Shown in pieces: positions 763 to 44,327 of a DNA stretch of 64,000 nucleotides. The number at the start of each line of letters is the position of its first letter. The first letter of the stretch is position 1. Position numbers and translations under genes: made by a program. The notes beneath the pieces are model-generated. The model was not told where the DNA came from, searched no databases, and saw only the letters and a list, made by a program, of their open reading frames with translations. Source of the stretch: Turnera subulata (lineage: Eukaryota > Streptophyta > Magnoliopsida > Malpighiales > Passifloraceae); contig JAKUCV010007332.1 of the NCBI GenBank assembly GCA_028386065.3, forward strand, positions 159,475 through 223,474, in the 5' to 3' direction.

Positions 763-1715
763 ACCATAGTATATATGTATGGCCATAGTTTTCGGACAAG
801 ATAGTCGTATTGTTCTTGTCTTTGGTTGTGCTCATTGTATTTCTTTTTTTTTTCTCTTAAACTTGAGTGGTTTTTTCTTTTCTCAATATTGAATTTATGT
901 GATCTTCATGCTATGTTTTTACCTTTCTTTTCAAGCCTAATAATTGAGTGAAAGAGATTGGGGATAAAGATTTGACTAGGATTATATCAACAGGTGCCTG
1001 AAAACTAAAGTAATCAGTCACCGTGGTAATATCCTTTAAAGCCCAATATCTAAAGGCTAGCTTGTAAAGAGAAGAGAGACCGTCATAAAAATGCAAAACC
1101 AATTGTCCCTTTTAGGCCTATGACAGTGATATTCACGGAAACTAGCAAACGCCCTCACGTTGTTTCGGCCATTGAAGATTGTCACTAAAAAATTTACAAT
1201 ATTGAGTACCTATCAAACTGTTTAATTAAAAATCAACCCTATTTAAAGTATTCTAATTAATACAATCCTCTAATTATATAATTGAAAAATTGTCTAACTA
1301 TGCAACTCTATTTTTACTCTATCTCAAGATCTTAATTAAGAAATCGTCTAATTGTGTAACCTCATCTTTACTAAGTCTCATGATCTTTCATATTTGGGTG
1401 TGGATTTGATTTATTCATATATCCCTTCTAAAGGCTCACTAGAAACCACTCCTCATCCACACTTTTACAAACACTGGCATACACTTCCAGTCCTTATTGA
1501 CCCCGACTATCATGCAAATTCGATTGATGAATGTTTTAAAAATTTATTGAATCTTGCATATAACTCATGTTAGATATGTGTTTAAGAAATATTATTGATT
1601 GTAAATTTTTTAAATGAAAAAAAAATTGCAATAGATGAGTAACGAAGAAGAAAATTTGAAGAATGACACCTATTCTCACTTTTTTTCTTTTTTCCTACTA
1701 ATTAAAAGTATGACA
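763..1715. other. A/T-rich intergenic DNA, no gene seen
   Basis: This is low-complexity A/T-rich sequence. A 73-codon open frame at 1352-1573 has no recognisable domain, promoter or homologue that I know and is not supported as a gene. Confidence 0.5.
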
Positions 1716-1720
1716 AAACT

Positions 1721-4714
1721 TGAAGCGCCCCGACCCGTATTTACCGTACACAGTAAACACGTGCCAGAACTATTCTTACTACAGTAGCAGACAGTACATA
1801 CAATATAAAATACAATACAAGCAATCCCCAAATACAATATTCGTCACCCGATCCCGGGGACCATTATTCAAGCCATTACACTCCAATCTAGTCGACAGCA
1901 GAGGACATAGGATACAACAGCAAATATAATACAGCAACAACAGCAGCAGAAAATATCCCCAACAGCAATAACACAATAGAAAGACAAGCAGCGGAAGACT
2001 TAGAATGAGATGCAGCGGAGGTATAGATCCGGAGTCTGGTGGAGTAGGACCAACAGCTGGCCGAACCACGTACCTGTACTACGAGCAACTAATCCTACGG
2101 GATGAAACCCCGCAGGCGAGGGGTGAGTCCGAAGTGCTCACCGACGAAGGATAAACAGTAATATGCAGGCAAACACAATACTTTCGAAGTAAAATTCCAG
2201 CAAAAGACATAACAGTGAAAAACCAGAATATAACTGAGCCAAGACCAAAAGAATAATTATTATTACCAAATTTTATCTTTCGGGCTCTGTCATTGGACAA
2301 GCTAGGGTCGTACCTGGTTATTAACATGTTCTGAGTGCTAGATCAATCCAAGAGAACCCAGGGATCGACATCCCAAAAATATAGATCCTAGGGATAGACA
2401 TCCCAAAAATATAATCACGGGATAGACATCACAAGCATAGACATGCTTATCACAAGTAACCTAGATCATAGCCACCATAAAACAGTCTCTAACCATCTAG
2501 TCGTACCACTACTTTCCTAGTGACAAATAAGTTGTCAACACAACTTCCAATTATCCAATTTTCTCATCATGTCAGTATATCCACAATCAACAAATCAGCA
2601 ACCACAACAGTAATACCACAATCAGACTCAATTGGCTCAGCAGTTCAATCAGGCAAAATAATCACAGAAAAACAAACACAGCTTCATGTGCAACATATCA
2701 AAGGTTATCCATCCTCACCTTAGCCGATTTCCCTACTCTTGAAAGTCCTCAAATTGTCCCGACTTCGGTTCCTCGGGATACTGTTCGTTATCGGCTCCTA
2801 TATAGCAAATAACAGCACATATTCACATAAGATGCACATAAATGCAAATGATGCTATACCGTAAAAATAAAGCCTAAACTGGTTCGTTTACGTCCCGGTG
2901 AAACCCCGTTATCATTATCATTCACTATTTATTATTCCTGTGTCAAATACTACACTATACTTTTACCCGGTTATTATTCTGGTATTTACTTTGATAATAC
3001 CATTTCCTTATTTATTTATAAGTATGTACTTTCCAAAATAATTATTATTGACCATATATATATATTCCCAAAATAATATTGTGTCAAAGCACTTATTTCA
3101 TTTATCCTCACAAATATAATCGTATACCATGTATATACTTTTCTGCCGTATTTTCCAAAAATATACTTATCACAAAATATTTCCTCAAATGCTAACGTGC
3201 ATATATATCTCTTCCTAAAAGTAATTATTATAACGTATTTCAATGGTATTTATCATATAATATTTTCCGGTAAAACATTTACATCCTATATATCCTTAAA
3301 AAAATTTACCACAATTTAATAATTATGTTATAATTATAATTATCATATGAAAGTAATTATTTCTTTTATTCCACAAAATATAATCATATACCATACATTT
3401 ATTATTTTATTTCCAAAAACCATATATAATCCATATTATTTATTTCTTCCCAGAATATATTTATTCTTTAATATCTATTATTATTTATTATTATTATTAT
3501 TATTTTTTAATTTCCGGACTAGGCCAAATAGTGCAAGCCCAGCCCAGTGCTTAGCCCCATATAACCCAGGTATATCCATATCAGGACCCAGGCCCACTAG
3601 TCTAAGCCCGATTGCAACTCAGCCCATTCAACCCAAGCCCTAAGTCATAAGAGAACCGGGTCAACCCAAACGGAATCGGGTCAAACCCGTCACAGATGGG
3701 TCGACCCGCGTCTCTTCCATACACAGCTCACCTTCCCGTTTGCAGGGTGGCGGCGGCTGGTCACTGTGCGACGACGAGGCGACGAAGGCGTGGCTGAAGG
3801 GGGAGGCGCACGACGGCAAACAAAGAGGGAAGCGGCGGAGGAAGGTGCGGCGACGAGCAACGAGAAAGGAGGGCGGCGACTCGTCAAGGGGACGGATCTG
3901 CAGGCACGGTGAAGGGGGGTGGCGCGACGGTATTGCTGCAGGCGGTTGCTGGCAGCGGTTTGCAACAAGGGCGCGGCGAGTCTCGGGACGGCTGCAGCTG
4001 CGACGCGATGGCAGGAAAAGGAGAAGGACGGTAAGGCGACGAGTCCTGCAGGTGGCGGCTGCGTCCTTTCCGGGCTATCTCCACTAGCGGCGCCGGCGAG
4101 GAGAAAAGAAATGGATGGTGGTCGGAACGGGTGGTGTGTTGGTGGCGGTTGTGTTGTGTGTTGTTTGGTATTTTATTTTTTTTTTCTTTTCTTCTTTTTT
4201 TCCTGGTTTTGGTTGCAGGGAAGAAACTGGCAGAGTATGGTGCTGGTTGTTTACAGTGGTGGTTTGCAGGGAGAATGAAGGAAACTGGCAGTGGAGTTGT
4301 GAGGCAGGGAAGAATTCACAGGTAACAAAGAAAACGTGCATGGGTATTGTCTAAACAGGAAAGAGGCGGCGACTGCCTGTATAATTGAGCCGCCTAAATT
4401 ATGCAGGTTTGTCTGCACATAACCCGTGCACCGATCGGACCAGAAAATATCTATTATACCCACTTGACTTAATTTCTGGTCCAGTAATTCGAGGTTAAAC
4501 CTGACTTTTCTTACGATTCCTAGACCCGAAAAATGCCAACTCTGGTCCGAAAAATCCGCTGAAAAATAGGGAACGTGAGGTAAAGGTCGGTTTCAGGATG
4601 CAATGCATAATTTACCCTGAAATAATTACCCAAGATTAATTTCATTAGATAAATTACTGTATAAAGTTTTTTTTACAGTCCCGGTAAAACATAAATTTTA
4701 CCCGGGCCGTTACA
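1721..4714 (-). repeat. Element A 3' LTR (2994 bp)
   Basis: It begins TGAAGCGCCCCGACC on the plus strand and ends GGGCCGTTACA, and it aligns along its length with 23423-26406. Read on the minus strand it starts TGTAACGGCCCGGG. It holds a degenerate palindrome set (2361-2448, including AAGCATAGACATGCTT), an A/T-rich zone (2880-3520) and a GC-rich coding-like zone (3720-4090). Open frames in the GC-rich zone are not supported as genes. On the minus strand that zone ends at a GGTGAGC splice-donor-like site. Confidence 0.92.
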
Positions 4715-4755: not shown

Positions 4756-5097
4756 CTATTCTGTAAAGAGATGCGGATACTGGGACCGCATGTGCTCTTC
4801 AACTTCCCAAGTAGACTCGTTAGCGGAATGCTTACTCCACTTGACCTTGACCATAGGAATGGTACAGTTCCGCAACTGCCGAACTTCTCGAGAAAGAATC
4901 TGCTTCGGCACTTCTGTGTAGGTAAGATCCTCTGCTACCTCAACATCCACTGGGGCAACAATGTGACTAGGTTCTGATCGATATCTCCTCAACATAGAGA
5001 CATGGAACACGTCATGAATACGTGATAGCTCATCAGGTAAAGATAACCTGTAGGCTAGTGGTCCAATTCTCTCCATGATCTCATAGGGTCCAATATA
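4756..5097 (-). pseudogene. Element A pol C-terminus with chromodomain-like module
   Basis: The translation carries the conserved post-integrase block (GPLAYRLSLP, IHDVFHVSMLRRY) followed by a chromodomain-like tail (REVRQLR, VKVKWS, STWEVEEHMR, YPHLF), ending at a stop at 4756. This module targets chromovirus integration to chromatin. Its upstream half lies at 19031-20017. The reading frame resumes exactly across the CCTTG duplication of element D (codons for SPR on one side, YIGPYEI on the other). This piece is open but separated from the rest of pol by 13.9 kb. Confidence 0.9.
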
Positions 5098-5102
5098 CCT
5101 TG

Positions 5103-5267
5103 TTTAACAGCCCGGGTAAAAATTTTGATTTTTACCGTGATTTACTGTTGAATTAATCTTGGGTAATTAATTCAAGGTAAATCGGGTGTCGTTTTTCGAA
5201 ACCGAGAGTTTTCCCGCGTTCGTGATTTTTCCGTGGATTTTTCGGACCTAAGTTGGTATTTTTCGGG
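5103..5267 (+). repeat. Element D 5' LTR, first 165 bp
   Basis: It matches the start of the D 3' LTR at 16090, apart from a small deletion after the first hairpin. It stops at TTTTTCGGG where element C begins with TGAAACGCCC. This is the left piece of an LTR interrupted by C. Confidence 0.85.
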
Positions 5268-8200
5268 TGAAACGCCCGACTCGTATTTATCGTACACAGT
5301 AAACACGTGTCAGAACTGTGACGACTCAATCAAACCAAACCCAGCATACAGTGTATACAACAGTAACTCGGCTCAACAGCCCAAAAATAATAACGTCAAT
5401 AACTACATAACCGGCCCAATGGCCCAACAATAGCAAAATAATGCACAGCGGAAGACTTAATAACTCACAAAGACACTGTATGCGACACATGATGCAAACT
5501 ATGGATCCGAGCCCTGTCCAAGGGATAACGCCGCAGCCTGTCTGGAATGCACCAAACCTGTACCACAAATAACTCATCCTACGGGATGAAAGCCCGCAGG
5601 TGAGGGGTGAGTCCGAAGTGCTCACCAACCAAGGATAAACAGAAATATGCAGGCAACTATAATACTTCAAAGAAGAAATACAGACAATAATCACAACCAT
5701 ACCAAAGTCAATACCGTACAAAACAGACCAAACTCAAGGACTCGACCCAACGTATCAAGGATTTTATTTCCAATTTTATTATTCTGGCCCCGTCACGGAT
5801 AAGCTAAGGTCGTACCAGGCTATCAACCTGTTTATGGTGCCAGATCAAAAAAAAAAACCCGGGATCAACATCCCAATATCAAATCTCAGGGATCAACATC
5901 CCAATAACAATCTCAGAGATCAACATCCCAATCACAATCTCAGGGATCAACATCCCAATCACAATCTCAGGGATCAACATCCCAATAACAATCTCAGGGA
6001 TTAACATCTCAATAACAATCTCAGGGATCAACATCCCAATAACAATCTCAGGGATCAACATTCCAATCACAATCTCAGGGATCAACATCCCAATCAATCC
6101 GGCATCAACATGCCCATCACAAGTAACCCAGATCATGGCCACCACAAAACAGTCCCAAACCATCCGGTCGTACCTCTACTTACCACGTGACAATAAAATC
6201 ATCATCTCAAATCAACTTCCAATTTCCATTTCTTTTTTCCCGATTATCCATATCATAGTTTATTCCAATTATCCAATCACAACACTGTCTACCGACAACA
6301 ATCACAATATCCCTAACAGTCAACAATTATCCAACTTCCTATTAGCTCAGGTTATACAGTAGACCAATCCATCAACAGTTTCATAACATCAATTACTCAC
6401 AGACCAACATCAATCACAACACAGTATCCAAGAGTCCAATAACAGTCAACGCAGCGGTTCAATCAAGCAAATCAACATCATAGCAACAACAACAACAATA
6501 ACCATAGCAGCCAAATAACCAACACAATTCCATATTATCAATTAACCAACAACAATACATATAACACCAATTATTCACAATTAACAGTTCATCACAATAT
6601 CCACACGACCAATAACACAGTCCAACAACAGCAACATCGATAACCATAACAGTCAAATAACCAACAATGACCCTCTCAGCAGTTCATTCAAACAACAAAA
6701 CACACAAAGTATTACTGGCACATATCAAGGGTTATCCATCCTCACCTTGGCCGATTACTCAACTCCGTAAACAATGACCGGTCCCAAGCCGGGTCCTCGA
6801 AAAACTGCTCGATATCCGAACCTATACAACAAAACAATATATACACATAAATGCACATAATCGGTATACTATGATGCCAAAACTGCGAAATAACCCATCC
6901 CGGTTACATATCTTTCATTATTTCCCTTTACCGAAAAATATTATACCGTACGTATATCCGAGTATAATTTCGGTACCATACTTTAATTAAAACTCTTTTC
7001 AAAATAATTTCATGAAATAATTATAATTTTCCAAAATTATAATCTCCTTAATTGTTTTCCAGAAAAATAATAACGTATTTATAATTTTCAGAAAATATTT
7101 ATATAGCATTTATCTTTTTCTAAATTTATATACAATAATATTTTCCAACACAAAATATAATTACCTTTAACTTTCAAAGTACATATATATATATATTCCT
7201 CAACCATAATTTTCTAGAGAAGATAATACATATATTAAATTTCCAGAAATTAATTTTATGGTATATATATATTTTTTCAATTAATAATATTTTTTCTCCA
7301 AAACATAACTTAATTATTTATCAATGTATATATATTTATTTTTCTCAAACTACCAGAATTAATTGATCATAATTTTCTCAAAGTAAATATATTTTTTTTT
7401 TCAAAACTGATTTTATTCCAGAAAATAAATAAATAAATATATATTAATCCCTTTTTTTTTACTGGACTGGGCCATGAACAGTAAGCCCATGCCCAGCCCA
7501 AGAACTAAGTCCAGCAACCTAACAGGTCAGCTTCCGGCCCAGGCGCACAGGCCCAGACCATAGTATGAGCCTCAGGCCCACGCCAAGCCCAGACCGCGCC
7601 AGCCAAGACTTCAGTTGACCCGTTAAGGAAACGGGTCGCTCACCCTCGGTGTCGGGTCTGCCTCATCACACCCGGGTCACCCACGACCCGTGGCTGTTGT
7701 TGCTGCTGCTCACCTTCGCAGCGGAGGTGACGGCGCGGCTGTGGCGAAGCGACACGGGGATGGCAAGGCGAGGCGGCGTGCGGCGTGAAGGCGGCGGTGA
7801 GAGAGGTGGTGACGGCCGGTGTGGGCGAGGTGATGGCGTGACCCGTCTGGTTGTGGATCACTCCATCGGCACGCCTTGGCTGGACGGCGCTGCAGCAGCG
7901 GTTGCAGGTGGGAGACAACGCGAGGACGGCGGTGGCAGCAGGTTGCAGCAAGCGGTCGTCGGTGCTGGTGGCTGCTACTCACGGCGGTTGGCAGAAGGGG
8001 AGGCGGCTCGGGCAGCAACTCTTCCTCTTTCTTTCTTTTTTTTCTTTTTCCTTATTCTTCCTTCCCGATTTCTTTTTTCCTCTCCCTCTCTATTTTTTTC
8101 TTTTTTTTCCTCTCTTCTTTTTTTTCCTTTCTTCGTCTCTTCTTTTTCTTCTCTATTTTTTTCTCTTCTTTCTTTTCTCTCTTTTTTTTTTTCCCTTCTT

Positions 8201-8566
8201 CCCCTTCCTGCTTTCTTCTTCCTTTAAAACCATAAAAATTACTGTGCATCACTGTGCGATCTGTGATTCCTTCAATAATGCAGCTTGTCTGCATTGTTGA
8301 AGCTAGTCGGTCCGGACCAGAAAATAACTGATACCCCCCCAGTTATTTTCCGGTGTGATTTTCCGAGAAATTCCGAAACCCGAAAAATACCAACTTAGGC
8401 CCGAAAAATCCACAGAAAAATCACGAGCGCGGGAAAACTCTCGTTTTCGAAAAATGACTCCCGATTTACCTTGAATTAATTACCCAAGATTAATTCAACA
8501 GTAAATCATGGTAAAAAGACTTTTACAGTCCCGGTAAAAATTAAAAATTTTACCCGGGCTGTTACA
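5268..8566 (-). repeat. Element C 3' LTR (3299 bp)
   Basis: It runs from TGAAACGCCCGAC to GGGCTGTTACA and has the same architecture as the D and E LTRs. From its 3' end (low coordinates) these parts appear: a conserved 8-bp-stem hairpin near 5578, the palindrome array 5861-6114, a C/A-rich zone, an A/T-rich zone (6900-7460), and a GC-rich then polypyrimidine block (7540-8230). Long frames across the last block (7649-8300) are low-complexity and not credible genes. Confidence 0.88.
5861..6114. repeat. Array of about ten short palindromes, spacing 23-28 bp
   Basis: Units read GGGATCAACATCCC (5-bp arms, 4-base loop) separated by CAATMACAATCTCA-type spacers. The first is at 5861-5874 and the ninth at 6078-6091. 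The tenth, at 6101-6114, reads GGCATCAACATGCC: both arms have changed so that pairing is kept. The second copy of the array is at about 13003-13230 in the C 5' LTR. Confidence 0.85.
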
Positions 8567-8585
8567 GTCTACCCACCTTAAAAAG
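8567..8585 (-). other. polypurine tract of element C
   Basis: On the minus strand the bases before the 3' LTR read TTTTTAAGGTGGGTAGAC and directly abut TGTAACAGCC. This fixes the orientation of element C as minus. Confidence 0.75.
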
Positions 8586-8709: not shown

Positions 8710-8717
8710 TATAAAAA
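8710..8717 (+). promoter_or_regulatory. TATA box of ORF-A in element C (antisense promoter)
   Basis: TATAAAAA lies 35 bases before the ORF-A start codon and is followed by CCAAACCTCA. The same TATA and CCAAACCTCA arrangement precedes ORF-A in elements D and E. Confidence 0.65.
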
Positions 8718-8894
8718 CCAAACCTCATAACTGGCAAACTCACACACAGTCATGGACTCTCCACTGAGGACAAGAACTACCTCAGACTCCGAGAACAACA
8801 GCTACATCGGCGGCACTGCCTTCCCGACAAGCTCCGATGAAGAACCTCCGAGGAAGCGCTTCAAGACGAACATCATCGGCCTGAAGGAACACAT

Positions 8895-10340
8895 CGTGAT
8901 ACCCCAGGTACACCCTAGAATATAGAGAAGTATTTGCATGATGAGATCCGGGTGTAGCTTGTCCTTCCGGCACGTTCGTATAGGTTGGATAGGGTATTCG
9001 AGAGAAAGTAGGTGATGTTGATAATGTTGGGTGTACATGATGGTATGGGTTTAGGCTCGGTAACATGATTGATATCGGATTGAGATGAGATGGTTCGCAT
9101 AGGCCTTGCCTAGTGCACANNNNNNNNNNNNNNNNNNNNNNNNNNNNNNNNNNNNNNNNNNNNNNNNNNNNNNNNNNNNNNNNNNNNNNNNNNNNNNNNN
9201 NNNNNNNNNNNNNNNNNNNNNNNNNNNNNNNNNNNNNNNNNNNNNNNNNNNNNNNNNNNNNNNNNNNNNNNNNNNNNNNNNNNNNNNNNNNNNNNNNNNN
9301 NNNNNNNNNNNNNNNNNNNNNNNNNNNNNNNNNNNNNNNNNNNNNNNNNNNNNNNNNNNNNNNNNNNNNNNNNNNNNNNNNNNNNNNNNNNNNNNNNNNN
9401 NNNNNNNNNNNNNNNNNNNNNNNNNNNNNNNNNNNNNNNNNNNNNNNNNNNNNNNNNNNNNNNNNNNNNNNNNNNNNNNNNNNNNNNNNNNNNNNNNNNN
9501 NNNNNNNNNNNNNNNNNNNNNNNNNNNAAGAGAAGTATGAACCCTAGATGCCTAAGGGTTCCAAAGGGATGGATTTGATGGCTTGATGTGCCTAATGGTT
9601 TGGTAAGTGGGGTTTGCTTACTTGTGATGATTGATGGTGCTACTTGCTTGGTAGATGCTCAATTGCTTGGTGAATTGCACCTATGGTGCTAAGCTGATGA
9701 TGTTGATGAAAGCCTTGGCTGAGCTGATGTGCCCATAATAGGGCTAAGCATTTGCACATTCATGCATTCCATTGCACGGATGCTGTATATTATATGTAAC
9801 GATGCTATGTATATATATATGTATCGATGGACCTTGCGAAGGCTGTGACTGCTTGGTCATTATGATGTTAACCTTGCTGTTGGATGCTATTTGCCGCTTG
9901 TTTGGTATTGTTGGTTGTTGCTAGTAAGTTGATTCTACTTACTGAGTCAGTGGACTCACCCCCCCCCCCCCCCCAATTCTTCTCCTTATTTTTCAGGTGC
10001 GAGAATGAGAGTACGGGCAGCGTAAACTGATGGGTATAGCTGAGTTGTATTATTTACTTAGTTGTATTAAAAGAGGTTATAATTGACATTGTATGAGTTA
10101 GTGCCCCTTGTAGCAGAATTCTATAACATTAAAGGATATGGAGTTTAATTCATTTTGGTATTTCTGTTGCCTTTGCATTCTTTGTTTGTTTCCGTTTACG
10201 CTGTGCATGTTCTTGTTAGTAACCCGCGAGGCAGAGGCAACAAGCTTCTGTGATGTTGTGTATAGGCCTTGGGGGTGCCTTGTGGCACGATGATGGTGCA
10301 CACGGTTCCTGGCCGGTCGCGCTTAGGCGGGGGCGTGACA
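8895..10340 (+). mobile_element. solo LTR (1446 bp including an assembly gap)
   Basis: It starts CGTGATACCCCAGG (TG to CG at the first base) and ends GGGGGCGTGACA, with CACAT on both sides (8890-8894 and 10341-10345). The same family begins at 63804 with TGTGATACCCCAGG, which supports the first base being a mutated T. No internal region is present, so it arose by LTR-LTR recombination. It sits inside ORF-A of element C and is the youngest event of the left nest. The plus strand is inferred from the TGTGATACC start matching the 63804 copy. Confidence 0.85.
9120..9527. other. assembly gap (408 N)
   Basis: An uninterrupted run of N inside the solo LTR. Open frames that cross it are artefacts. 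Confidence 0.99.
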
Positions 10341-10613
10341 CACATGGTCGTCTCCAGCAAACGGCGAAAGAAAAGTGCTCCCAAGAAAGCTGAGGATAAG
10401 AAGGGCAAGGCGATAGCTGAGAGCAGCACTCCGCAGCAGACACTGACGCAGCTAAACGTCTCACTGAAGAAGATCAGCTCGGCGGTGTTGCAGATAGAGC
10501 TGGCGTGCGCGGAGCTCTTCCCTCATATGAAAACCGTCCAAAAACTTGTAAAAGACTTAGAGAAGCATGTAACTCAATAGAGTACTTCTTCTCCGTTTGT
10601 AAAACTATTATGA

Positions 10614-10619
10614 AATAAA
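10614..10619 (+). terminator. poly(A) signal of ORF-A (element C)
   Basis: AATAAA lies 34 bases past the ORF-A stop within ATGAAATAAATAAAATAAG. The corresponding site exists in D (ATGAAATAAATAAAATA on the minus strand near 15480-15497) and in E (AATAAATAAA near 45368). Confidence 0.5.
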
Positions 10620-11330
10620 TAAAATAAGTTTCCTTTTTAAATCAAAATCTCTTGTTAAATTGTGAAAACTCATGCTAATAGAAAAATAAAAACATCACAA
10701 AGCAAAACAAAAATCAACAATAAGAATATAAAATCAAATATAAAGAAATCAAAAATTAAATCTCGTTTAACAAAACCAAAGTATAAAGAAGTTAAAACGA
10801 AACACGTTTTCATGACCGGTGCTCGTATCGGACGTAAACATCCTCGAACCCAAGAAACGTGACACGTGCGACTAACGGTGACGTCTGTTTCCCTCGTGAA
10901 AAAGATGACCGTTAACTCGCACAGTGACGATCACGAGAGCGTGCTGTGTCCCTCGAGAGAAACGTACCCACTTGTTCACAAATTCCGCATGAGCCAAAAA
11001 CGTCTGTCAAGCCTTGTATCTCTCCACGACGTCCGAACAAGTGTAAGCTTGTCGCACATGCGCTCTACTCGAGGTACAGTCCCATCCGTCTAGCCTCAAC
11101 GGTCACAAATGCATGTGATAAAAGATGCAGGAAAATATAGAAAAACCATAGAAAGAAAGGACAAAGTAGCCAGAGCGAAAGAAAATCATGAGATGGTAAA
11201 AGGCTGAAAAATTCTGGCACTGGTAGCCCGAAAAACGTGTAAAGTAACAAGGCAATAAATGAATGCAACGAAAAATTTCAAAAAGCAAAATCTTGAAAAT
11301 CAAAAACGGTAATCACGCTCCCCATAAGAG

Positions 11331-11337
11331 TATAAAA
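11331..11337 (+). promoter_or_regulatory. TATA box of ORF-B in element C
   Basis: TATAAAA within CATAAGAGTATAAAAG lies about 110 bases before the ORF-B start. Element D has the same words on the minus strand at 14817-14823, and element E has TATAAAAG at 44412-44418. Confidence 0.6.
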
Positions 11338-11448
11338 GAAACGGAGCGGTGAGGTGTAAATCATCAAAACATCTAAAAGCAACAAAACGCTCAGAAACAC
11401 AAAACCACAACTCTCGAAAAAACAAAATACCCACGCGTCCAAAACAAC

Positions 11449-12132
11449 ATGCCTGCTCCCTCATCTGTCTTCTTCGTCGAAGGTGCCAATCTAGGCAGAA
11501 GGAACCGAATGGCCTACAGCATGGTCAACGAGCGTCCAGAAGAACTACCGAACGAGCTCGGCAGGATGCCGCGTCTGGTCTTCATCGACAAACTCTACTC
11601 ATCGAGGTTCTTCATCACTCCTATGGAAGAGACGTTCTTCCTGGAGGACCATGGCACTCTGAGGACCTCCTACTACGGATCGGCAAACTCCATCATGTTC
11701 TTCATCTTCGAAAAACTTCAGGAGTTCAACCTGGAGTCCACTTGCCATACCCTGGAGCAAGGCACCTACTATCTGCTCTCGATGACGGCCCAGAGCATGC
11801 CCAGAGTCACTCGTCTGCCCGTAACTTGGCCCAAGGCCCGACTACTGGTGTGGAACTGCAGAGGAGTCGCAAGGCGTTCCCAGGAGTTCTCGCGTACTCT
11901 GAGGGACCTGAAGAACCAATACAAGCCCAACATGGTTCTTCTCACGGAGACCCAGTGGCAGCCTCAAGACGATCACGATCTCATCCCACTCTGGTTCCCT
12001 CAAGCAAACCGGTTCGAGCTTCCCTGTCAGGACAACAGAGGCGGCATGTGGTTCTCTTGGAGCGACAACATCCAAGTCAACATCAACAACGACCCAAACA
12101 GCTTCAAGGTCAATGTCGTTCCAGGGCGATAA
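11449..12132 (+). CDS. ORF-B of element C: novel N-terminal region plus LINE-type EEP-like segment (227 aa, intact)
   Basis: This is the only uninterrupted copy of ORF-B in the window. Residues 1 to about 125 match nothing I recognise (conserved words GRMPRLVF, LYSSRFF, TPMEETFFLED). Residues 132-205 resemble the start of the endonuclease/exonuclease/phosphatase (EEP) domain of plant LINE ORF2: VWNCRG (134-139, with the Asn of the active site), a helix, PNMVLLTET (160-168, with the metal-binding Glu), then GGMWFSW (198-204). The domain then stops; the later Asp and His active-site motifs of a roughly 230-residue EEP are absent. So catalysis is unlikely, and a binding or regulatory role is inference. 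The gene is antisense to its retroelement, with its own TATA box and an AATAAA at 12313. The first ATG after the TATA box was taken as start and is conserved in D and E. Confidence 0.75.
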   Translation: MPAPSSVFFVEGANLGRRNRMAYSMVNERPEELPNELGRMPRLVFIDKLYSSRFFITPMEETFFLEDHGTLRTSYYGSANSIMFFIFEKLQEFNLESTCHTLEQGTYYLLSMTAQSMPRVTRLPVTWPKARLLVWNCRGVARRSQEFSRTLRDLKNQYKPNMVLLTETQWQPQDDHDLIPLWFPQANRFELPCQDNRGGMWFSWSDNIQVNINNDPNSFKVNVVPGR

Positions 12133-12386: not shown

Positions 12387-12398
12387 GCTCCGCTACCA
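12387..12398 (-). other. primer-binding site of element C
   Basis: On the minus strand it reads TGGTAGCGGAGC, three bases after the LTR end. It matches the usual initiator-tRNA-Met site (TGGTATCAGAGC) at 10 of 12 positions. The same two differences occur in A, D and E. Confidence 0.6.
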
Positions 12399-12401: not shown

Positions 12402-13644
12402 TGAAACGCCCTGACCCGTATTTACCGTACACAGTAAACACGTGTCGGAACTGTGACGACTCAATCAAACCAAGCCCAGCATACAATGTATACAATAGTA
12501 ACTCGGCTCAACAGCCCAAAAATAATAACGTCAATAACTACATAACCGGCCTAATGGCCCAACAATAGCAAAATAATGCACAGCGGAAGATTTAATAACT
12601 CACAAAGACACTGTATGCGACACATGATGCAAACTATGGATCCGAGCCCTGTCTAAGGGATAACGCCGCAGCCTGTCTGGAATGCACCAAACCTGTACCA
12701 CAAATAACTCATCCTACGGGATGAAAGCCCGCAGATGAGCGGTGAGTCCAAAGTGCTCACCAACCAAGGATAAACAGAAATATGCAGGCAACTATAATAC
12801 TTCAAAGAAGAAATACAGACAATAATCACAACCATACCAAAGTCAATACCGTACAAAACAGACCAAACTCAAGGACTCGACCCAACGTACCAAGGATTTT
12901 ATTATTTTTTTTCCAATTTTATTATTCTGGCCCCGTCACGGATAAGCTAAGGTCGTACCAGGCTATCAACCTGTTTATGGTGCCAGATCAAAAAAAACTC
13001 AGGATCAACATCCCAATATCAAATCTCAGGAATCAACATCCCAATAACAATCTCAGGGATCAACATCCCAATCACAATCTCAGGGATCAACATCCCAATC
13101 ACAATCTCAGGGATCAACATCCCAATAACAATATCAGGGATCAACATCCCAATAACAATCTCAGGGATCAACATCCCAATCACAATCTCAGGGATCAACA
13201 TCCCAATCAATCCGGCATCAACATGCCCATCACAAGTAACCCAGATCATGGCCACCACAAAACAGTCCCAAACCATCCGGCCGTACCTCTACTTACCACG
13301 TGACAATAAAATCATCATCTCAAATCAACTTCCAATTTCCATTTCTTTTTTCCCAATTATCCATATCATAGTTTATTCTAATTATCCAATCACAACACTG
13401 TCTACCGACAACAATCACAATATCCCTAACAGTCAATAATTATCCAACTTCCTATTAGCTCAGGTTATACAGTAGACCAATCCATCAACAGTTTCATAAC
13501 ATCAAATACTCACAGACCAACATCAATCACAACACAGTATCCAAGAGTCCAATAACAGTCAACGCAGCGGTTCAATCAAGCAAATCAACATCATAACAAC
13601 AACAACAACAATAACCATAGTAGCCAAATAACCAACACAATTAA
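12402..13644 (-). repeat. Element C 5' LTR, truncated (about 1.24 kb)
   Basis: It aligns with the 3' LTR from 5268 to about 6530, including the hairpin array near 13003-13230. It ends abruptly after AACCAACACAATT, where the sequence switches to the last 100 bp of a plus-strand LTR. Confidence 0.85.
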
Positions 13645-13745
13645 ATCTCTATTGTATACACTGTATGTTGGGCTTGGTTTGGTTGGGTCGTCACAGTTCC
13701 GGCACGTGTTTATTGTGTACGGTAAATACGGGTCGGGGCATTTCA
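13645..13745 (+). repeat. Element D 5' LTR, last ~100 bp
   Basis: It reads TATTGTATACACTGTATG through GGGGCATTTCA and matches the end of the D 3' LTR (about 18930-19025). The primer-binding site follows immediately. It is the right remnant of the LTR broken by element C and a later deletion. Confidence 0.85.
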
Positions 13746-13748: not shown

Positions 13749-13760
13749 TGGTAGCGGAGC
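13749..13760 (+). other. primer-binding site of element D
   Basis: TGGTAGCGGAGC three bases after the 5' LTR end. It is identical to the sites in C and E and fixes the plus orientation of D. Confidence 0.6.
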
Positions 13761-14025: not shown

Positions 14026-14706
14026 TCACCTTGGAACGACGTTGACCCTGAAGCTGTTGGGGTCATTGTTGATGTTGACTTGGATGCTGTCACTCCACGA
14101 GAACCACATGCCGCCCCTGTTGTCCTGGCCTGGAAGCTCGAACCGGTTTGCTTGAGGGAACTGGAGTGGGATGAGACCGTGATCGTCTTGAGGCTGCCAC
14201 TGGGTCTCTGTGAGAAGAACCATGTTTCACTTGTATTGGTTCTTCAGGTCCCTCAGGGTACGCGAGAACTCTTGGGAACGCCTAGCGACTCCTCTGCAGT
14301 TCCACACCAGTAGTCGGGCCTTTGGCCAAGTTACGGGCAGACGAGTGGCTTTGGGCATGCTCTGGGCCGTCATCGAGAGTTGGTAGTAGGTACCTTGCTC
14401 TAGGAAATGGCAAGTGGACTCTAGGTTGAACTCCTGAAGTCTTTCGGAGATGAAAAACATGATGGAGTTTGCCGAGCCGTAGTAGGAGGACCCCAGAGTG
14501 CCATGGTCCTCCAGGAAGAACGTCTCTGCCATGGGCGTGACGAAGAACCGCGATGAGTAGAGTTCGTCGACGAAGACCAGACGCGGCATCCTGCCGAGCT
14601 CGTTCGGTAGTTCTTCTGGACGCTCGTTGACCATGCTGTAGGCCAGACGGTTTCTTTTGCCTAGGTTGGCACCTTTGACGAAGAAGACGGATGAGGGAGC
14701 AGGCAT
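14026..14706 (-). pseudogene. ORF-B of element D, one premature stop
   Basis: It is close to the element C copy along its whole length, including VWNCRG, LLTET and GGMWFSW. A TGA at 14224-14226 replaces the Pro codon just before NMVLLTET, leaving a 159-codon N-terminal piece and a 65-codon C-terminal piece. Start codon and upstream TATA box match the element C copy. It is antisense to the plus-oriented element. Confidence 0.75.
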
Positions 14707-15525: not shown

Positions 15526-15904
15526 CTATGGAGTTACTTGCTTCTCAAGATCTTTTACAAGCTTTTGTACGTTCTTCACGTGAGGGAAGAGTTCCGCGCA
15601 CGCCTGTTCGATCTGCATCACCGCCGAGCTGATCTTTCTTCAGTGAGATGTTCAGCTGCGTCAGAGTCTGCTGCGGAGTGCTGCTTTCAGCCGTCGCCTT
15701 GCCCTTTCGATCTTCAGCCTTCTTGTTGGCACACTTCTTTCGCCGTTTTGGGGAGACGACCATGTGCTCTTTCAGGCCGATGATGTTCGTCTTGAAGCGC
15801 TTCTTTGGCGGTTCTTCATCGGAGCTTGTCGGGAAGGCAGTGCCACCGATGTAGCTGTTGTTCTCGGAGTCAGAGGTTGTTCGAGATCGGAGTGGAGAGT
15901 CCAT
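15526..15904 (-). pseudogene. ORF-A of element D, frameshifted near residue 90
   Basis: The first 90 codons match ORF-A of element C, including both basic clusters (PPKKRFK, KRRKK). After SLKK a one-base loss shifts the frame, and the product ends at 15545 instead of the family stop at 15526-15528. In the shifted frame the C-terminal helix can still be read from the DNA, so the event is recent. Confidence 0.7.
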
Positions 15905-16071: not shown

Positions 16072-16089
16072 TTTTTACGGTGGGTAGAC
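16072..16089 (+). other. polypurine tract of element D
   Basis: The run TTTTACGGTGGGTAGAC stands directly before the LTR start TGTAATAGCC at 16090. Confidence 0.7.
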
Positions 16090-19025
16090 TGTAATAGCCC
16101 GGGTAAAAATTTTGATTTTTACCGGGACTGTAAAAGTCTTTTTACCATGATTTATTGTTGAATTAATCTTGGGTAATTAATTCAAGGTAAATCGGGAGTC
16201 GTTTTTCGAAACCGAGAGTTTTCCCGCATTCGTGATTTTTCCGTGGATTTTTCGGATCTAAGTTGGTATTTTTCGGGTCCCGGGATTTTCGGAAAAATCA
16301 CACCGGAAAATAACTAAGGGGGTATCAGTTATTTTCTGGTCCGGACTGGACTCGCTCCATAATGCAGACAAGCTGCATTATTGGAGAATCATAGGTGAAA
16401 TAGTTTCATCGTCTATAAAAGGAAGAAGAAAGCAGGAGAGGGGAAGAAGAGAAGAGAAAAAGAGAGAAAAGGAGAGGAAAAAGAAAAGAGAGAAAAAGAA
16501 AAAAAAGAGAAAAAAAAGAAAAAAAAAGGAATCAAAAAAATAGAGGGGAAAGGAAAAAAAAAGAAGAAAAAAGAAAAAAATATATAGAAAGAGAAAAAAA
16601 AAGGAAGAAAATCAAAGAAAAAGAAAAGAAAGGAAAATAAGAAAATAGGAGTAAAGGAAAGAAAAATAAAGAAAAAAAATAGGAAGAAAAAAAAAGAAAC
16701 CCGGAACGTGAACAGTTGCCACCCGCCCCTGCACTGTTCACGACGAAGCGTTCGGAGGCAAATAACGTCGCACCGCCGCCACCAGCATCACCTCCTCTCC
16801 GTCGCCGACCTGTTGTCGTCGCCCCCGAGTCCTTCCGTCCACCATAGCGCCGTGACGCGTCGTTGACCCGCGGCGAAACCCGGCGGATCCAGCTCCCTCG
16901 CGCCTGCCGCCTCTTGCCGACGACGCAGCGCCGCCGTTCCACCGCCCTTGGAGTCGCCCTCGTCTGCCGCTGCTGTGGGTGTGCTCGCTTCCCTTCCTCG
17001 AGCCTGTCGTCGCCGTCGCGCCGCTGCAACCTGCCAAGGTGAGCAGATCCGGATTCGTTGACCCGCGTGCTTGTCCGGGTCGCGAACTTGGGTTTTCAGT
17101 TGTGGGCTTGTGTGTGGGTTGGGCCGAATGGATGTTGGGCCAGGCTAGGCGTGGGCCTGTGTTCGGGCCTGCTGCCTTGGTCTGGGCCGGCACTATTCAT
17201 GGCCCAGTCCGTTTAATTTTTTTTAAAAAACAAAATATATACATATATGTATTTATTTATATTCTGGTATTTAATTTTGAGAAAAAAATATATATTTATT
17301 TTGAGAAAATTATGGCCAATTTAATTTTGGTATTTTGAGGAAAATATAAATATATATACTTTGATAAATAATTAAGTTATGTTTTGGAGAAAAACTAATA
17401 TTATTTGGAAAAATATATAAATAACGTGAAAATAAATTCTGGAAATTTAATATATGTATTATTTTCTCTAGAAAATTATGGTTGTGGAAATTATATATAT
17501 ATATATGTACTTTGAGAATTAAAGATAATTACATTTTGTGTTGGAAAGTACTATTATATATATATATAGAAAAAGATAAATACTATATATAATTTCTGGA
17601 AATTATAAATAGGTTATTATTTTTCTGGAAAAATTATGGAGATTATAATTTTGGAAAATTATAATTAGTTTGAAAAGAGATTTAATTTAAGTATGGTACC
17701 GAAATTATATTCGGATGTACGTACGGTATAATATTTTCGGTAAAAGATAATAATAACGAATATGAACCGAGATGGGTTATTTCGAAGTTTTGGCATCATA
17801 GCATACCGATTATGTGCATTTATGTGTATATGTTGTTTTGCTGTATAGGTTTGGATATCGGGCAGTTTCCCGAGGAGCCGGCGTCGGACCGGTCATTGTT
17901 TCAAGAGTTGAGTAATCGGCCAAGGTGAGGATGGATTTCCTTCAATATGTGCCTGTATTAATCGGTTATTGTGTTTGATGATTATTGCTATGTTGCTTGT
18001 TGCATTTGCTGTGTTTTGGTTTGGGATGTTTATCCCATGATCTTGATTGTTGTCGGGATGTTTATTCCAGTATGTTGATTTGGTTTTGGGATGTTTATCC
18101 CTGTGTTGAGATTTTGGATGTTAACCACTGTGTCATTTTGGTCTAAAGTATAATGGAATAAATAATTAATTGTGATAAGGATGTCGATCCTTGGTTTGGT
18201 TTGGGATGTCTATCCCGGTATTTTGGTTAGGGATGTTGATCCCTGTGATTTGATTTTGATGATGATAATATAATTGTCACGTGATAAGTAGTGGTACGAC
18301 TCGATGGTTTAAGACTATTTTGTGGTGGCCTTGACCTGGGTTACTTGTGATAAGCATGTCTATGCTTGGGATGTCTATCCCGTGATTATTTTTGGGATGT
18401 CTATCCCTGGGTTCGTTTTATTGGGATGTCAATCCCTGGGTTCTCTGGATTTGGTCTGGCACCCGGAATGTGTTGATAACCAGGTCTGACCCCTAGCTTA
18501 TCCGTGACGGGGCCCGGAAAGATAAAATTGGAAATTGGATTTTTATTTGAGTCTTTTGGTCTTGGACCGGTTTTGGGTCGCGTCTTTGTTTTGGTGTGTT
18601 TGGCTGTTTAGCCTGTGTTTGACTTGAGTATTTATAGTGTGCATATTGATTGTCTTTCCTTCGTCGGTGAGCACTTCGGAGTCCCCCCTCACCTACGGGC
18701 TTTCATCCCGTAGGATGAGTTATTTGTGGTGCAGGTTTGATGCATTCCAGACAGGCTGCGGCGTTATCCCTTGGACAGAACTTGGATCCATAGTTTGCAT
18801 CTATGTCGCATACAGTGTTTATGTGAGTTATTAAGTCTTTAGTTGTGCATTATTTTTACTATTGTTGGGCCATTGGGCCGGTTATGTTGTTATTGTCATT
18901 TTTATTTTGGGCTACTGAGCCCGAGTTTCTGTTGTATACACTGTATGCTGGGCTTGGTTTGGTTGGGTCGTCACAGTTCCGGCACGTGTTTACTGTGTAC
19001 GATAAATACGGGTCGGGGCGTTTCA
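16090..19025 (+). repeat. Element D 3' LTR (2936 bp)
   Basis: It runs from TGTAATAGCCCGGG to GGGGCGTTTCA and is the most complete D LTR. Parts in order: a 5' hairpin (CCCGGGTAAAAA paired with ATTTTTACCGGG), a long purine tract (16400-16710), a GC-rich block ending in AAGGTGAGC near 17040, an A/T-rich zone (17210-17760), the conserved CAAGGTGAGGATGGAT box near 17921, the palindrome array 18023-18436, a CCTACGGG/CCCGTAGG hairpin near 18692, and the terminal ACGTGTTTACTGTGTACG block. Confidence 0.9.
18023..18436. repeat. Palindrome array in the D 3' LTR (about 11 units)
   Basis: Units of the form GGGATGTYTATCCC occur at 18023, 18055, 18088, 18203, 18368, 18394 and 18423. Variant units keep pairing with different arms: AAGGATGTCGATCCTT at 18177-18192, AGGGATGTTGATCCCT at 18229-18244 and AAGCATGTCTATGCTT at 18352-18367. 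One unit near 18116 is decayed. Spacing is irregular, unlike the array in element C. Confidence 0.85.
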
Positions 19026-19030
19026 CCTTG

Positions 19031-20017
19031 GGCTCAGCTTTCCTCTCTTGCCAAACCTGATTACACCCTTCCAAGGTGCTACTCTGAGGAAAACCTTCTG
19101 ACCAACGTTATACTCCATCTCTCGTCGGTGTTTGTCGGCGTAGCTCTTCTGCCGATCCTGAGCAGCTCTCATACACTGTCTCACTGTCTGGATCTTATCC
19201 ACTGTCTGTTGGACTAATTCTAGACCAATGATCAACCTCATACCTTCTTCATCCCAACACACTGGACTTCTACACTTCCTTTCATAGAGGGCCTCAAAAA
19301 GTGGCATACCAATGCTGGAATGGTAGCCGTTGTTGTAGGCAAACTCTGCCAAGGGTAGATACTTATCCCAACTCCCACTGCAGTTAAGTGCACAAGCCCT
19401 CAACATATCCTCCAGCGTCTGTATAGTCCTCTCAGACTGTCCATCTGTCTGAGGATGAAAAGCAGTGCTGAAGCTCAGCTTAGTCCCTAGCGCTGCTTGT
19501 AAACTCTTCCAGAAACGTGATGTAAACCTCGGATCCCTGTCTGAGACTATAGACTTTGGAATCCCATGTAGTCTCATAACCTCAGCAACATACTTACCCG
19601 CCAATGTGTCCATGGTATCAGTTTGGCGGATAGGTAGAAAATGTGCCGATTTTGTTAATCGATCAACGATGACCCAAATAGCATCATGCTGCCTCCGAGT
19701 CATCGGTAAACCAATCACAAAATCCATAGTGATCATCTCCCACTTCCACTCTGGCACTGTCAAAGATCTCAACTTTTCTGCTGGTGCTTGATGCTCAACT
19801 TTCACCTGTTGGCAAGTGAGACATCTTACAACATACTCAGCTACATCCTTCTTCATACGAGGCCACCAGAAATGACTCTTCAGGTTCTGATACATCTTGG
19901 TGCTTCCAGGATGCATCGCATATGGCGTCATATGACCTTCTTCCAGGATCTGACTGCGCTGATTACTGACATTGGGTACACATACTCGTTTCCCAATCAT
20001 CAGTGCGCCATCATCAG
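19031..20017 (-). pseudogene. Element A integrase
   Basis: It holds the zinc-binding H2C2 segment (HPGSTKMYQNLKSHFWWPRM then CLTCQQVK), then the integrase core with Asp in TMDFVIGLP and in IVSDRDPRF, and Glu in DGQSERTIQTLE. The spacing fits the D,D-35-E pattern of Ty3/Gypsy integrases. The frame is open to the CCTTG duplication at 19026-19030, where element D cuts it. The C-terminal part continues at 5097. Confidence 0.9.
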
Positions 20018-20647
20018 CTATACGGAACTTGTCCTCTTTTCCACTCCTTCCTTAAGCTTGACCAGGTCGGGATCTCCATCTTGTAACTCCACTATCCATC
20101 TTCTTAGATTAGACTTGACACTCATATGTTCCAGTAAAGCTCCTGTATCATCAACTGTCAAACCGACTCCCAACTTCCTTAGCTCGATAAGTGAGAACAT
20201 CGAGTAACTAGTGGAAGCATCCTCTGGTTGTCTCCGGCTCAAGGCATCAGCTACCACATTAGCCTTTCTTGGGCGATACTCGATAGTACAGTCATAATCA
20301 TTAAGTAACTCAACCCAACATCTCTGTCATAGGTTAAGCTCCTTCTGAGTCATGATGTACCTAAGACTCTTGTGGTCAGTGAAAATCCGACACTTCTCTC
20401 CAAACAAGTAGTGTCTCCAAATCTTCAGAGCCAAAATCACAGCTGCCATCTCAAGATATGCGTCGGATAATTCTTCTCATGAGTCCTCAACTGCCTAGAG
20501 GCGTAGGCAATCACCCATCCTTCTTGCATCAGCACGGCTCCTAAACCAAGTCCCGATGCATCACAAAACAACAACATACTCAACACCAGGCTTCGGTACT
20601 ATCAGAACCGGTGTTGTGCTCAGCTTCTTCTTAAGCTTCTCAAAACT
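20018..20647 (-). pseudogene. Element A RNase H region, broken
   Basis: Recognisable words on the minus strand include [32 protein letters not shown] and [10 protein letters not shown], the normal RNase H order of Gypsy elements. Several stops interrupt the frame (near 20644, 20320 and elsewhere). The 79-codon piece at 20018-20257 carries the conserved DALSRR end. Confidence 0.8.
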
Positions 20648-21931
20648 CTACTGACATTCCGGGCTCCAAACAAATGCCTGTTCTTTCCTTAATAGCTTGG
20701 TCATGGGACTGGCTAATAAGGAAAAACCTTCAATGAACCTCCGATAGTATCCTACAAGTCCAAGAAAACTTCTGACTTCGGATACATTCTTAGGTGGTTC
20801 CCATTCCAATACGGCCTTTACTTTGGCAGGTTCAACCTTTATTCCATCCCCGCCAACCACATGTCCAAGGAAAGAAACTTCTCCAAGCCAAAATTCACAC
20901 TTACTGAATTTGGCATGCAACTGCTTCTCATGTAACCTCTGAAGCACTATCCTCAAATGCTCTTCATGTTCCTCTTTACTCTTAGAGTAAATGAGGATAT
21001 CGTCGATGAAGACCACGAAAAACTTATCCAAAAATTCGTTCAAGACCAAGTGCATCAAGCACATGAACACTGCTGGTGCATTGGTCAATCCAAATGGTAC
21101 CACTGTGAACTCAAAATGACCATACCGTGTGCGGAAGGCAGTCTTCGGTATGTCCTTCTCAGCAATCTTGATCTGGTGATATCCAGACCGAAGATCAATC
21201 TTGGAAAACACAGTGGCTCCTTGCAACTGATCAAACAGGTCACCAATCCTAGGCAACGGGTACTTGTTCTTAATTGTCACCGTGTTCAGCTGGCGGTAGT
21301 CTACACACATCCGCAAGCTACCATCCTTCTTCTTGACAAACAGAACTGGTGCACCCCATGGTGAGGTACTGGGTCTGATGAAACCCTTTTCTAACAGCTC
21401 ATCCAACTGCTTCTTCAGCTCTTGGAGCTCTTTTGGTGCCATCCTGTATGGAGCCATCGATATGGGTGTGACTCCAGACATCAGGTCGATAGTATACTGA
21501 ACTTCTCTGTCGGGTGGCAAACCTGGCAAATCATCTGGGAAGACATCAAGGAACTCCTTCACCACTGATATATCTCCCGGGGTAGGATCTCGTGTATCTT
21601 CACTTGTGATGTGGTTCAGCAAAACATCTGGACCATGCGGCTTCACTCCAGAATCCTGCATAGCAGAGATGCTACATGCAGCAGCAGCTCTCCTAATACC
21701 GGTTACCAAAACTTGTCGTCCATTATCATAAGTCAGCAGCACTTCCTTAGTCCAACAGTTCACCAGAGCATTATATCTCGACAACCAATCCATCCCTAGG
21801 ATTATGTTGAATCCGCCCATGTTCATCACAAGCAAACGAGCTAAGAAAACCTCATCATCATAAGAAAGGAGAACATCCTTGCACACTTGTGTTAATCTCA
21901 CCACTATGCCCGCGGGTAATCTAACCCTCAA
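20648..21931 (-). pseudogene. Element A protease end and reverse transcriptase
   Basis: A 427-codon open stretch. It starts within the tail of the aspartic protease ([11 protein letters not shown]), then the RT with [37 protein letters not shown] and the catalytic box [12 protein letters not shown]. The two aspartates of the FIDD box are present, so the RT core itself looks intact. Stops on both sides (protease/RT junction near 21980, RNase H at 20647) inactivate the polyprotein. Confidence 0.9.
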
Positions 21932-21979
21932 CGGACTTGCTAAACTCTCTTCCTTACAGCTATGTTGTATGGAAAAACT

Positions 21980-23407: not shown

Positions 23408-23419
23408 GCTCCGCTACCA
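23408..23419 (-). other. primer-binding site of element A
   Basis: On the minus strand it reads TGGTAGCGGAGC, three bases after the LTR end, identical to the sites in C, D and E. Confidence 0.6.
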
Positions 23420-23422
23420 AAC

Positions 23423-43502: not shown

Positions 43503-44327
<825 letters not shown>

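What the first reader, a model, noticed from the sequence alone, without database searches (positions are those of the whole stretch)
8752..12132. LTR retrotransposon family whose only genes are two antisense genes
Elements C (8752-12132), D (14026-15904) and E (43644-45806) each have LTRs, primer-binding site and polypurine tract in one orientation and two conserved genes in the other. No gag or pol is present. The same two-gene order and spacing in three copies of different age, with the frame of both genes kept despite many substitutions, indicates that the cassette spread with the element. Antisense extra ORFs are known in a few plant Gypsy elements (for example Grande and Ogre-type elements), but those keep gag-pol. 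Here the antisense genes have fully replaced it, which I have not seen described.
Basis: partly seen in the sequence, partly recalled or inferred. Interest (0 to 1): 0.92.

Follow-up and report, generated by a model that had tools for sequence, protein, structure and literature searches.

The report
Two-gene antisense retrotransposon satellite family
A repeated family of retrotransposons in a plant genome carries none of the genes a retrotransposon needs to copy itself and instead holds two well-preserved genes written on the opposite strand, which likely help it while a related complete retrotransposon likely does the copying.

Summary
C, D and E belong to a non-autonomous LTR-retrotransposon family of a 519-Mb plant genome: 2.5-3.2 kb LTRs around a 2.25-2.67 kb inside (nine complete copies) holding two genes, both antisense to the element. 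No gag or pol lies inside the element in any of 20 loci. Six of nine complete copies have flush 5-bp target duplications. In copies chosen by their spacer, dN/dS is 0.13 for ORF-A (17 of 20; 0.36 with all 20) and 0.19 for ORF-B (18 of 20), against about 0.7 in neutral simulation. Each gene has a conserved TATA box. PBS, PPT and LTR ends match a chromodomain Gypsy element, the likely helper, whose pol stops 41 bp before its 3' LTR. ORF-A ends in about 90 residues of a LINE-type endonuclease; ORF-B has a predicted long C-terminal helix. Neither has a relative in a protein set that holds thousands of relatives of the helper's RT. No expression data: function and mobilisation are inferred.

The parts
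5268..8566 (-). Element C, 3' LTR (element-sense strand is -)
   Evidence: Self-blast; LTR end ...TGTTACA| at 8566 and TGAAACG start at 5268
8567..8579 (-). C polypurine tract (AAGGTGGGTAGAC on - strand)
   Evidence: sequence
8710..8715 (+). TATA box of C ORF-B, 42 bp before ATG
   Evidence: TATA-like hexamer within 120 nt of the B ATG in 36 of 38 copies
8752..10580 (+). C ORF-B (antisense to element), split by an insertion at about 8911-10340
   Evidence: tblastn pieces 8752-8901 and 10341-10547
11331..11336 (+). TATA box of C ORF-A, 118 bp before ATG
   Evidence: 40 of 43 copies have a TATA-like hexamer within 170 nt of the A ATG
11449..12132 (+). C ORF-A, 227 aa, open; residues about 133-219 resemble the N-terminal part of LINE-type endonucleases
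12387..12398 (-). C primer-binding site TGGTAGCGGAGC
   Evidence: sequence
12402..13648 (-). C 5' LTR, truncated
   Evidence: 5268-6529 matches 12402-13642 at 94.8%
13649..13745 (+). Element D, remnant of 5' LTR
   Evidence: Inverted match to C; LTR end ...TTTCA|
13749..13760 (+). D primer-binding site TGGTAGCGGAGC
   Evidence: sequence
14026..14706 (-). D ORF-A, one internal stop
15545..15904 (-). D ORF-B (119-aa frame)
16077..16089 (+). D polypurine tract
   Evidence: sequence
16090..19025 (+). D 3' LTR
42208..43306 (+). Element E 5' LTR (part)
   Evidence: 93.1% to 47811-48938
43310..43321 (+). E primer-binding site TGGTAGCGGAGC
43644..44327 (-). E ORF-A, one in-frame stop; second subfamily
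45438..45806 (-). E ORF-B, 122 aa, open
45989..48938 (+). E 3' LTR (start taken from blast edges)
23416..26406 (-). Helper-type Gypsy element, 5' LTR
   Evidence: 95.5% to 1713-4714
19026..22719 (-). Helper gag-pol (zinc knuckle, protease, RT, integrase), damaged; continues at 5267-4759 beyond the nested C and D
4759..5267 (-). Helper pol end; the corresponding part of helper copy L059 has a chromodomain
1713..4714 (-). Helper-type Gypsy element, 3' LTR

Best explanation
C, D and E are copies of a non-autonomous LTR-retrotransposon family that holds no gag or pol and carries two conserved genes on its antisense strand; it is likely copied in trans by a chromodomain Gypsy helper, while its two proteins likely act in the nucleus to favour the element's own expression or copying. 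Shown here: the structure with flush target duplications, matching PBS, PPT and LTR ends in helper and family, purifying selection on both proteins, and a conserved TATA box before each gene. Predicted: each gene is a separate Pol II unit transcribed from the 3'-LTR side towards the 5' LTR; ORF-B (basic middle, long C-terminal helix) dimerises and binds nucleic acid or chromatin; ORF-A (new N-terminal domain plus a LINE-type endonuclease piece that ends before the TAVYASP stretch) binds rather than cuts. Inferred design reason: whole genes with their own poly(A) signals can ride inside an LTR element only in antisense, because in sense they would cut the genomic RNA short. Selection on a protein made by a helper-dependent element implies that it acts mainly on its own copy or family, as an anti-silencing or RNA-recruiting factor would.
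For: Whole structure: nine complete copies among 20 fetched loci, LTR K2P 0.022-0.047 (0.8-1.8 My at 1.3e-8), 6 of 9 with flush 5-bp duplications read by eye. Inside the element no pol/integrase in 20 of 20 loci and no gag in 20 of 20 (L018 has gag only in its flanks). Selection: spacer-picked ORF-A 0.133 (17 of 20; L032, L034, L042 dropped because their 3' part does not align; 0.359 with all 20), ORF-B 0.185 (18 of 20), neutral simulation 0.70 and 0.66; window pairs 0.17-0.22; E-type against C-type ORF-A 0.14 at dS 0.61, within E-type 0.27. Of six frames the gene frame is lowest and nearly stop-free; spacer frames are 0.65-0.81. TATA before A in 40 of 43 and before B in 36 of 38 copies; AATAAA after B in 37 of 37. 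B lies upstream of A on the same strand at 0.9-1.3 kb in 21 of 40 E-type hits; the other 19 have no B among the 150 listed (by eye). Helper shares PBS, PPT and LTR ends, has several copies in open frames over 1500 codons, a chromodomain (one copy tested), and no A/B in 3 of 3. A's C-terminus scores 39.6 bits against six endonuclease heads of long ORFs of the same genome, best of 2000 shuffles 10.2. B has one confident helix, residues 77-124.
Against: No RNA or protein evidence: transcription, localisation and trans-mobilisation are untested. ORF-A could not be folded (mean pLDDT 31) and its N-terminal half has no known relative. AATAAA asymmetry between strands is partly base composition: 45 seen against 22 expected on the gene strand, 5 against 2 on the other; AATAAA follows ORF-A in only 3 of 43 copies. 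The mirror element-sense frames are also low (0.24 and 0.26), as expected from shared third positions, but in B that frame has only 2.4 stops per copy. Synonymous divergence (0.25-0.38) exceeds spacer divergence (0.107), probably because copies were picked by spacer and codons are GC3-rich, but this is unresolved. Helper and family LTRs are only about 74-79% alike, in parts. Many copies are decayed: ORF-A is open in 4 of 20 and ORF-B in 11 of 20 spacer-picked copies. Weak ORF-A matches to helper LTR ends are unexplained.
Confidence: 0.57

Rival explanations
1. Passenger capture: an LTR element swallowed two host genes by chance and spread them as cargo without use to the element; the low dN/dS is left over from their life as host genes.
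For: Gene capture by plant LTR elements is known (PMC7264820). ORF-A contains a LINE-type piece.
Against: C-type and E-type elements share order, spacing, spacer and LTRs, so they diverged as elements, yet dN/dS between them is 0.14-0.22 at dS 0.55-0.71. Neutral change over that distance gives about 0.65-0.69.
Confidence: 0.08
2. The conserved sequence acts as RNA or DNA (packaging signal, siRNA source) and the open frames are by-products.
For: Antisense transcripts could form double-stranded RNA; the review PMC7264820 raises this for antisense ORFs.
Against: Differences gather at third codon positions (46-69%); the gene frame is lowest and nearly stop-free, while the mirror element-sense frames carry 10.5 (A) and 2.4 (B) stops per copy.
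Confidence: 0.05
3. The two genes serve the host: a domesticated gene family that sits in dead elements.
For: Strong purifying selection.
Against: Many copies, many of them decayed, and complete elements 0.8-1.8 My old.
Confidence: 0.05
4. The proteins act on the helper rather than for their own element, for instance diverting its GAG or RT, like a satellite of a virus.
For: Helper dependence and shared ends; both genes kept across two subfamilies.
Against: No data on interaction; no gag-like Pfam match for either protein at E up to 1.
Confidence: 0.25

Closest known systems
Maize Grande gene23 and related antisense ORFs (RIRE2, Retand, PvRetro13)
   Same: Antisense gene near the 3' LTR; own promoter and nuclear protein reported for Grande; PvRetro13 ORF2 has an SMC-type domain (PMC7264820, parts 1-2 of 3 read)
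   Different: Those elements carry gag-pol with the antisense ORF beyond pol; Retand ORFs usually carry TRP28 (PMC11963269, passages seen). Here gag-pol is absent, there are two genes, the likely helper has a chromodomain, and no Pfam domain passes its cut-off
LARD / TRIM / TR-GAG non-autonomous LTR elements
   Same: LTR, PBS and PPT kept; helper needed
   Different: LARD and TRIM lack coding regions, TR-GAG lacks pol but is gag-bearing by name (PMC5818461, passages seen); here two antisense proteins are conserved
Wheat RLG_WHAM and RLG_Sabrina
   Same: Whole populations lacking RT and INT coding (PMC9744471, passages seen)
   Different: No antisense genes reported in the passages seen; 'antisense' occurs 0 times in that text
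VANDAL/VANC anti-silencing in Arabidopsis
   Same: Mobile element encoding a protein that counters silencing of its own family (PMC10398659, PMC5735166: starts of abstracts in a listing only)
   Different: DNA transposons (recalled); no sequence relation tested
HTLV-1 HBZ
   Same: Antisense gene of a retroelement (PMC11963269, passages); basic and helical protein (recalled)
   Different: Complete retrovirus; no homology tested

Membership tests
Non-autonomous LTR retrotransposon | Two LTRs, PBS, PPT, target duplication | tested here: met
   9 complete copies among 20 loci, 6 of 9 with flush 5-bp duplications
Non-autonomous LTR retrotransposon | No pol coding | tested here: met
   no RT/integrase match in 20 of 20 loci
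LARD | No coding capacity inside | tested here: not met
   two ORFs under purifying selection
TR-GAG | Sense gag kept | tested here: not met
   helper gag pieces match inside the element in 0 of 20 loci
Antisense-ORF Gypsy elements (Grande, Retand, RIRE2) | gag-pol present, antisense ORF between pol and 3' LTR | tested here: not met
Antisense-ORF Gypsy elements (Grande, Retand, RIRE2) | Antisense gene with its own promoter | tested here: inconclusive
   TATA boxes kept; no transcript data
Retand | TRP28 domain (PF04195) in antisense ORF | tested here: not met
   no such match at E up to 1 in 24 and 22 proteins
Chromovirus (helper element) | Chromodomain at the end of integrase | tested here: met
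   L059: PF00385, 28.0 bits, cut-off 25.1; one copy tested
Chromovirus clade Tekay/Del (helper element) | RT tree position | not tested
   The Tekay label rests on recalled LTR/PPT style only
LINE-type endonuclease (ORF-A C-terminus) | Sequence homology to LINE endonuclease | tested here: met
   all six endonuclease heads match by blastp (E 3e-10 to 3e-5); that these six ORFs are LINEs is inferred from their 1377-1388-codon frames; PF03372 below its cut-off in 23 of 24 proteins
LINE-type endonuclease (ORF-A C-terminus) | Complete catalytic domain | tested here: not met
   Only profile positions 2-88 of 225 matched; ends before TAVYASP

The most novel reading that the evidence does not exclude
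This is a retrotransposon satellite in the sense of a satellite virus: it borrows the whole replication machine of a chromovirus but brings its own two-gene programme, run from its own promoters on the opposite strand, that controls where, when or whether its RNA or the helper's is copied.
Probability: 0.4. Interest if true: 0.88.

Novelty: new variant of a known kind. Interest (0 to 1): 0.74.

Why it matters
Helper-dependent LTR elements are usually treated as non-coding parasites. Here two protein genes stayed under selection across two subfamilies although the element needs a helper, so these proteins must matter to the element itself. That turns the open question of what antisense genes of plant retroelements do into a clean test: no gag-pol confounds it, intact alleles are many, and the likely helper is in the same genome. 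It also suggests a general rule, that whole genes can be carried by LTR elements in antisense. If ORF-B counters silencing it would be a retrotransposon parallel to VANC.

Tried and rejected
Structure: AlphaFold2 of ORF-A failed (mean pLDDT 31), so no fold search was run; ORF-B gave only helices, too little to search. PDB sequence search gave nothing credible (best E 0.14 and 0.26). Protein database: ORF-A no hit (25 candidates), ORF-B none of 4205 candidates; the positive control with the helper's RT region gave 7983 hits, the named ones in the listed 120 being plants. Strand bias of AATAAA as proof of the antisense design: rejected as proof, because composition explains part. Weak ORF-A matches to helper LTR or pol-end pieces (E 3e-4 to 0.003, 24-68 residues, 25-29 bits): none of 300 Markov shuffles reached them, but they differ between helper copies, one runs through a stop, and L059 and the C and D LTRs show none; I take them as chance, not proven. 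Copies L032, L034, L042 were dropped from the main ORF-A count because their 3' part does not align; with them dN/dS is 0.359. The ORF-A copies are chosen by similarity to C, so their dN/dS (0.100) is biased and was not used as main evidence. Co-location of pol and ORF-A hits over contigs was not scripted.

Papers: the searches listed no LTR element whose only genes are antisense; that covers what those searches of an open-access library listed, and one search was a poor query. Passages only were seen of PMC11963269, PMC9744471, PMC6317226, PMC13317346 and PMC5818461; a term search of PMC3059260 found nothing. The primary papers on Grande gene23 and on extra ORFs in Gypsy elements were not read; they are cited through the review PMC7264820.
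Full report
What is there. The window lies in contig C6630 of a genome held as G000 (518.7 Mb, 7125 contigs); that it is a plant is inferred from the relatives of its Gypsy pol. It contains a damaged Gypsy element on the minus strand (LTRs 1713-4714 and 23416-26406, 95.5% alike, gag-pol 22719-19026). Elements C and D sit inside its 3' coding end, in opposite orientation to each other, between 5268 and 19025. A third copy, E, lies at about 42208-48938. Each of C, D and E has two genes, B then A in gene orientation, on the strand opposite to that of the PBS and, in C and D, the PPT.

Whole elements elsewhere. Twenty ORF-A hits were fetched as 10-kb loci. Nine give a clean pair of whole LTRs around B and A; six give partial pairs, one a tandem, and four (L011, L014, L021, L022) none. 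In the nine the inside is 2.25-2.67 kb, the aligned LTR blocks are 2.5-3.2 kb and differ by K2P 0.022-0.047, or 0.8-1.8 My at 1.3e-8 per site per year (this rate is quoted in PMC5818461). Six of the nine are flanked by perfect 5-bp duplications flush with TG...CA ends: L012, L013, L016, L019, L023, L027 (read by eye). The helper's RT and integrase find nothing in any of the 20 loci. Its gag pieces find nothing in 19, and in L018 only on both flanks, where the element is inserted in a helper's gag. So the cassette spread inside an integrating LTR element and not by chance beside it.

Helper. The family shares PBS (TGGTAGCGGAGC), PPT and both LTR ends with the Gypsy element of the window. Inside the LTRs, blastn of the C and D insides against the helper pieces finds only about 38 bp next to the 3' LTR in common. 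Of 98 scored RT copies (7839 candidates) several lie in open frames of over 1500 codons. In the 3' ends of two copies (L059, open frame 1542 codons; L060, 1397) and of the window copy, pol ends 41 bp before the 3' LTR and no A/B gene is present. L059 has RNase H, the integrase zinc-binding domain and a chromodomain above the Pfam cut-offs. The clade name Tekay is recalled and was not tested by a tree.

Selection. To avoid choosing copies for intact genes, 20 further copies were taken by DNA similarity of the non-coding spacer between the genes (20 of the 40 listed). In these, ORF-A is open in 4 of 20 and ORF-B in 11 of 20. Yet pairwise dN/dS is 0.133 for A (17 copies; 0.359 if the three with an unalignable 3' part are kept) and 0.185 for B (18 copies). 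A neutral simulation with the substitution spectrum of the elements' own LTR pairs gives 0.70 and 0.66; single simulated pairs go down to 0.36 (A) and 0.19 (B). A six-frame control shows the gene frame as the lowest and the only one nearly free of stops; the mirror element-sense frames are 0.24 and 0.26 but carry 10.5 and 2.4 stops per copy. The spacer gives 0.65-0.81 in all six frames. A second subfamily, the E type, has at least 39 further copies at 92-94% DNA identity to E. ORF-A of ten of these plus E against five C-type copies gives dN 0.086, dS 0.61, ratio 0.14; within the E type the ratio is 0.27. Distances of A, B and spacer among 34 copies correlate (Mantel 0.76-0.82 with E, 0.25-0.36 without it), as expected if they travel together with some recombination.

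Gene layout. A TATA box lies at -42 of the B start in all copies printed, including C, D and E, and at about -114 to -120 of the A start in the C-type copies printed that have one (-91/-92 in E-type): 36 of 38 and 40 of 43 copies by pattern, and 9 of 10 E-type copies for A. AATAAA follows B in 37 of 37 copies but A in only 3 of 43. Element-sense frames of nine insides reach at most 182 codons stop to stop.

Proteins. ORF-A is 227 aa. Its residues about 133-219 match endonuclease heads of six long ORFs, presumed LINEs, of the same genome (39.6 bits against their profile, best of 2000 shuffles 10.2), in line with a sub-cut-off Pfam match in 23 of 24 copies. It stops before the TAVYASP stretch, so a full nuclease is absent. 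Residues 1-128 match nothing in these searches. ORF-B is typically 125 aa: serine-rich start, basic middle (KKRFK, RRRKKR), and a helix at 77-124 with pLDDT of 93-98 over its core. Neither protein has a relative at E up to 0.001 in the 5.8-billion protein set, whereas the helper RT has thousands. A and B are therefore lineage-limited as far as that set shows.

How it likely works. The sense RNA, made from the 5' LTR, is likely packaged and copied by helper proteins. Separately, two antisense mRNAs likely make A and B. Because the element gains nothing from a protein that helps all copies alike, their preservation points to action biased towards the element's own copy or family: anti-silencing at its LTR, or recruitment of its RNA. 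B is the likelier nuclear factor. All of this is inference; only structure and selection are shown. The antisense placement is explained if complete Pol II genes would otherwise end the genomic RNA early; the AATAAA asymmetry fits but is partly composition.

Known and new. Antisense ORFs are known in Grande (own promoter), RIRE2, Retand and PvRetro13, beside gag-pol in what was read (PMC7264820 parts 1-2; PMC11963269 passages, which also mention non-autonomous Retand elements lacking some domains). Non-coding or pol-less derivatives are known as LARD, TRIM and TR-GAG (PMC5818461 passages). The listings showed no LTR element whose only genes are antisense. The fair class is a new variant of a known kind.

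Noticed in passing
window 8911-10340: About 1.4 kb insertion that splits C's ORF-B, with 408 N inside and an ACACAT-like repeat at both edges; looks like a solo LTR of another family (by eye).
   Followed up: partly
L018 (gene orientation about 990-1313 and 9373-9999): Helper gag matches on both sides of the element: this copy is inserted within the gag of a helper copy.
   Followed up: partly
window 36400-39187 (+): MULE transposon genes (MuDR DNA-binding, MULE and SWIM domains), with an acidic-repeat ORF in front.
   Followed up: partly
window 41063-41617 (-): 184-aa ORF with a zinc-finger-like CSCGK...H..C..C pattern (GRF-like by eye, recalled), coiled coil and C-terminal hydrophobic segment next to the MULE.
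   Followed up: no
window 60295-63283 (-): Broken Copia pol (RVT_2, rve, gag_pre-integrs).
   Followed up: no
G000 contigs C5662 and C6648: ORF-B recurs at regular spacing (2486 bp apart, three copies; 6304 bp apart, two copies), suggesting tandem arrays of the family.
   Followed up: no
L009: A partial second ORF-A start sits in tandem just before the full one.
   Followed up: no
ORF-A/ORF-B against spacer, L029-L048: Synonymous divergence exceeds spacer divergence two- to three-fold; selection of copies by spacer and GC-rich third positions may explain it, or the spacer is constrained.
   Followed up: partly
window 4630-4761 and L060 2397-2588: Short weak matches of ORF-A residues 41-84 and 82-149 to helper LTR or pol-end pieces; beyond 300 shuffles but not seen in L059 or the C and D LTRs.
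   Followed up: partly
window 33348-35230: An LTR stretch of the same family, 93-95% alike to E's 3' LTR, without a partner seen.
   Followed up: no
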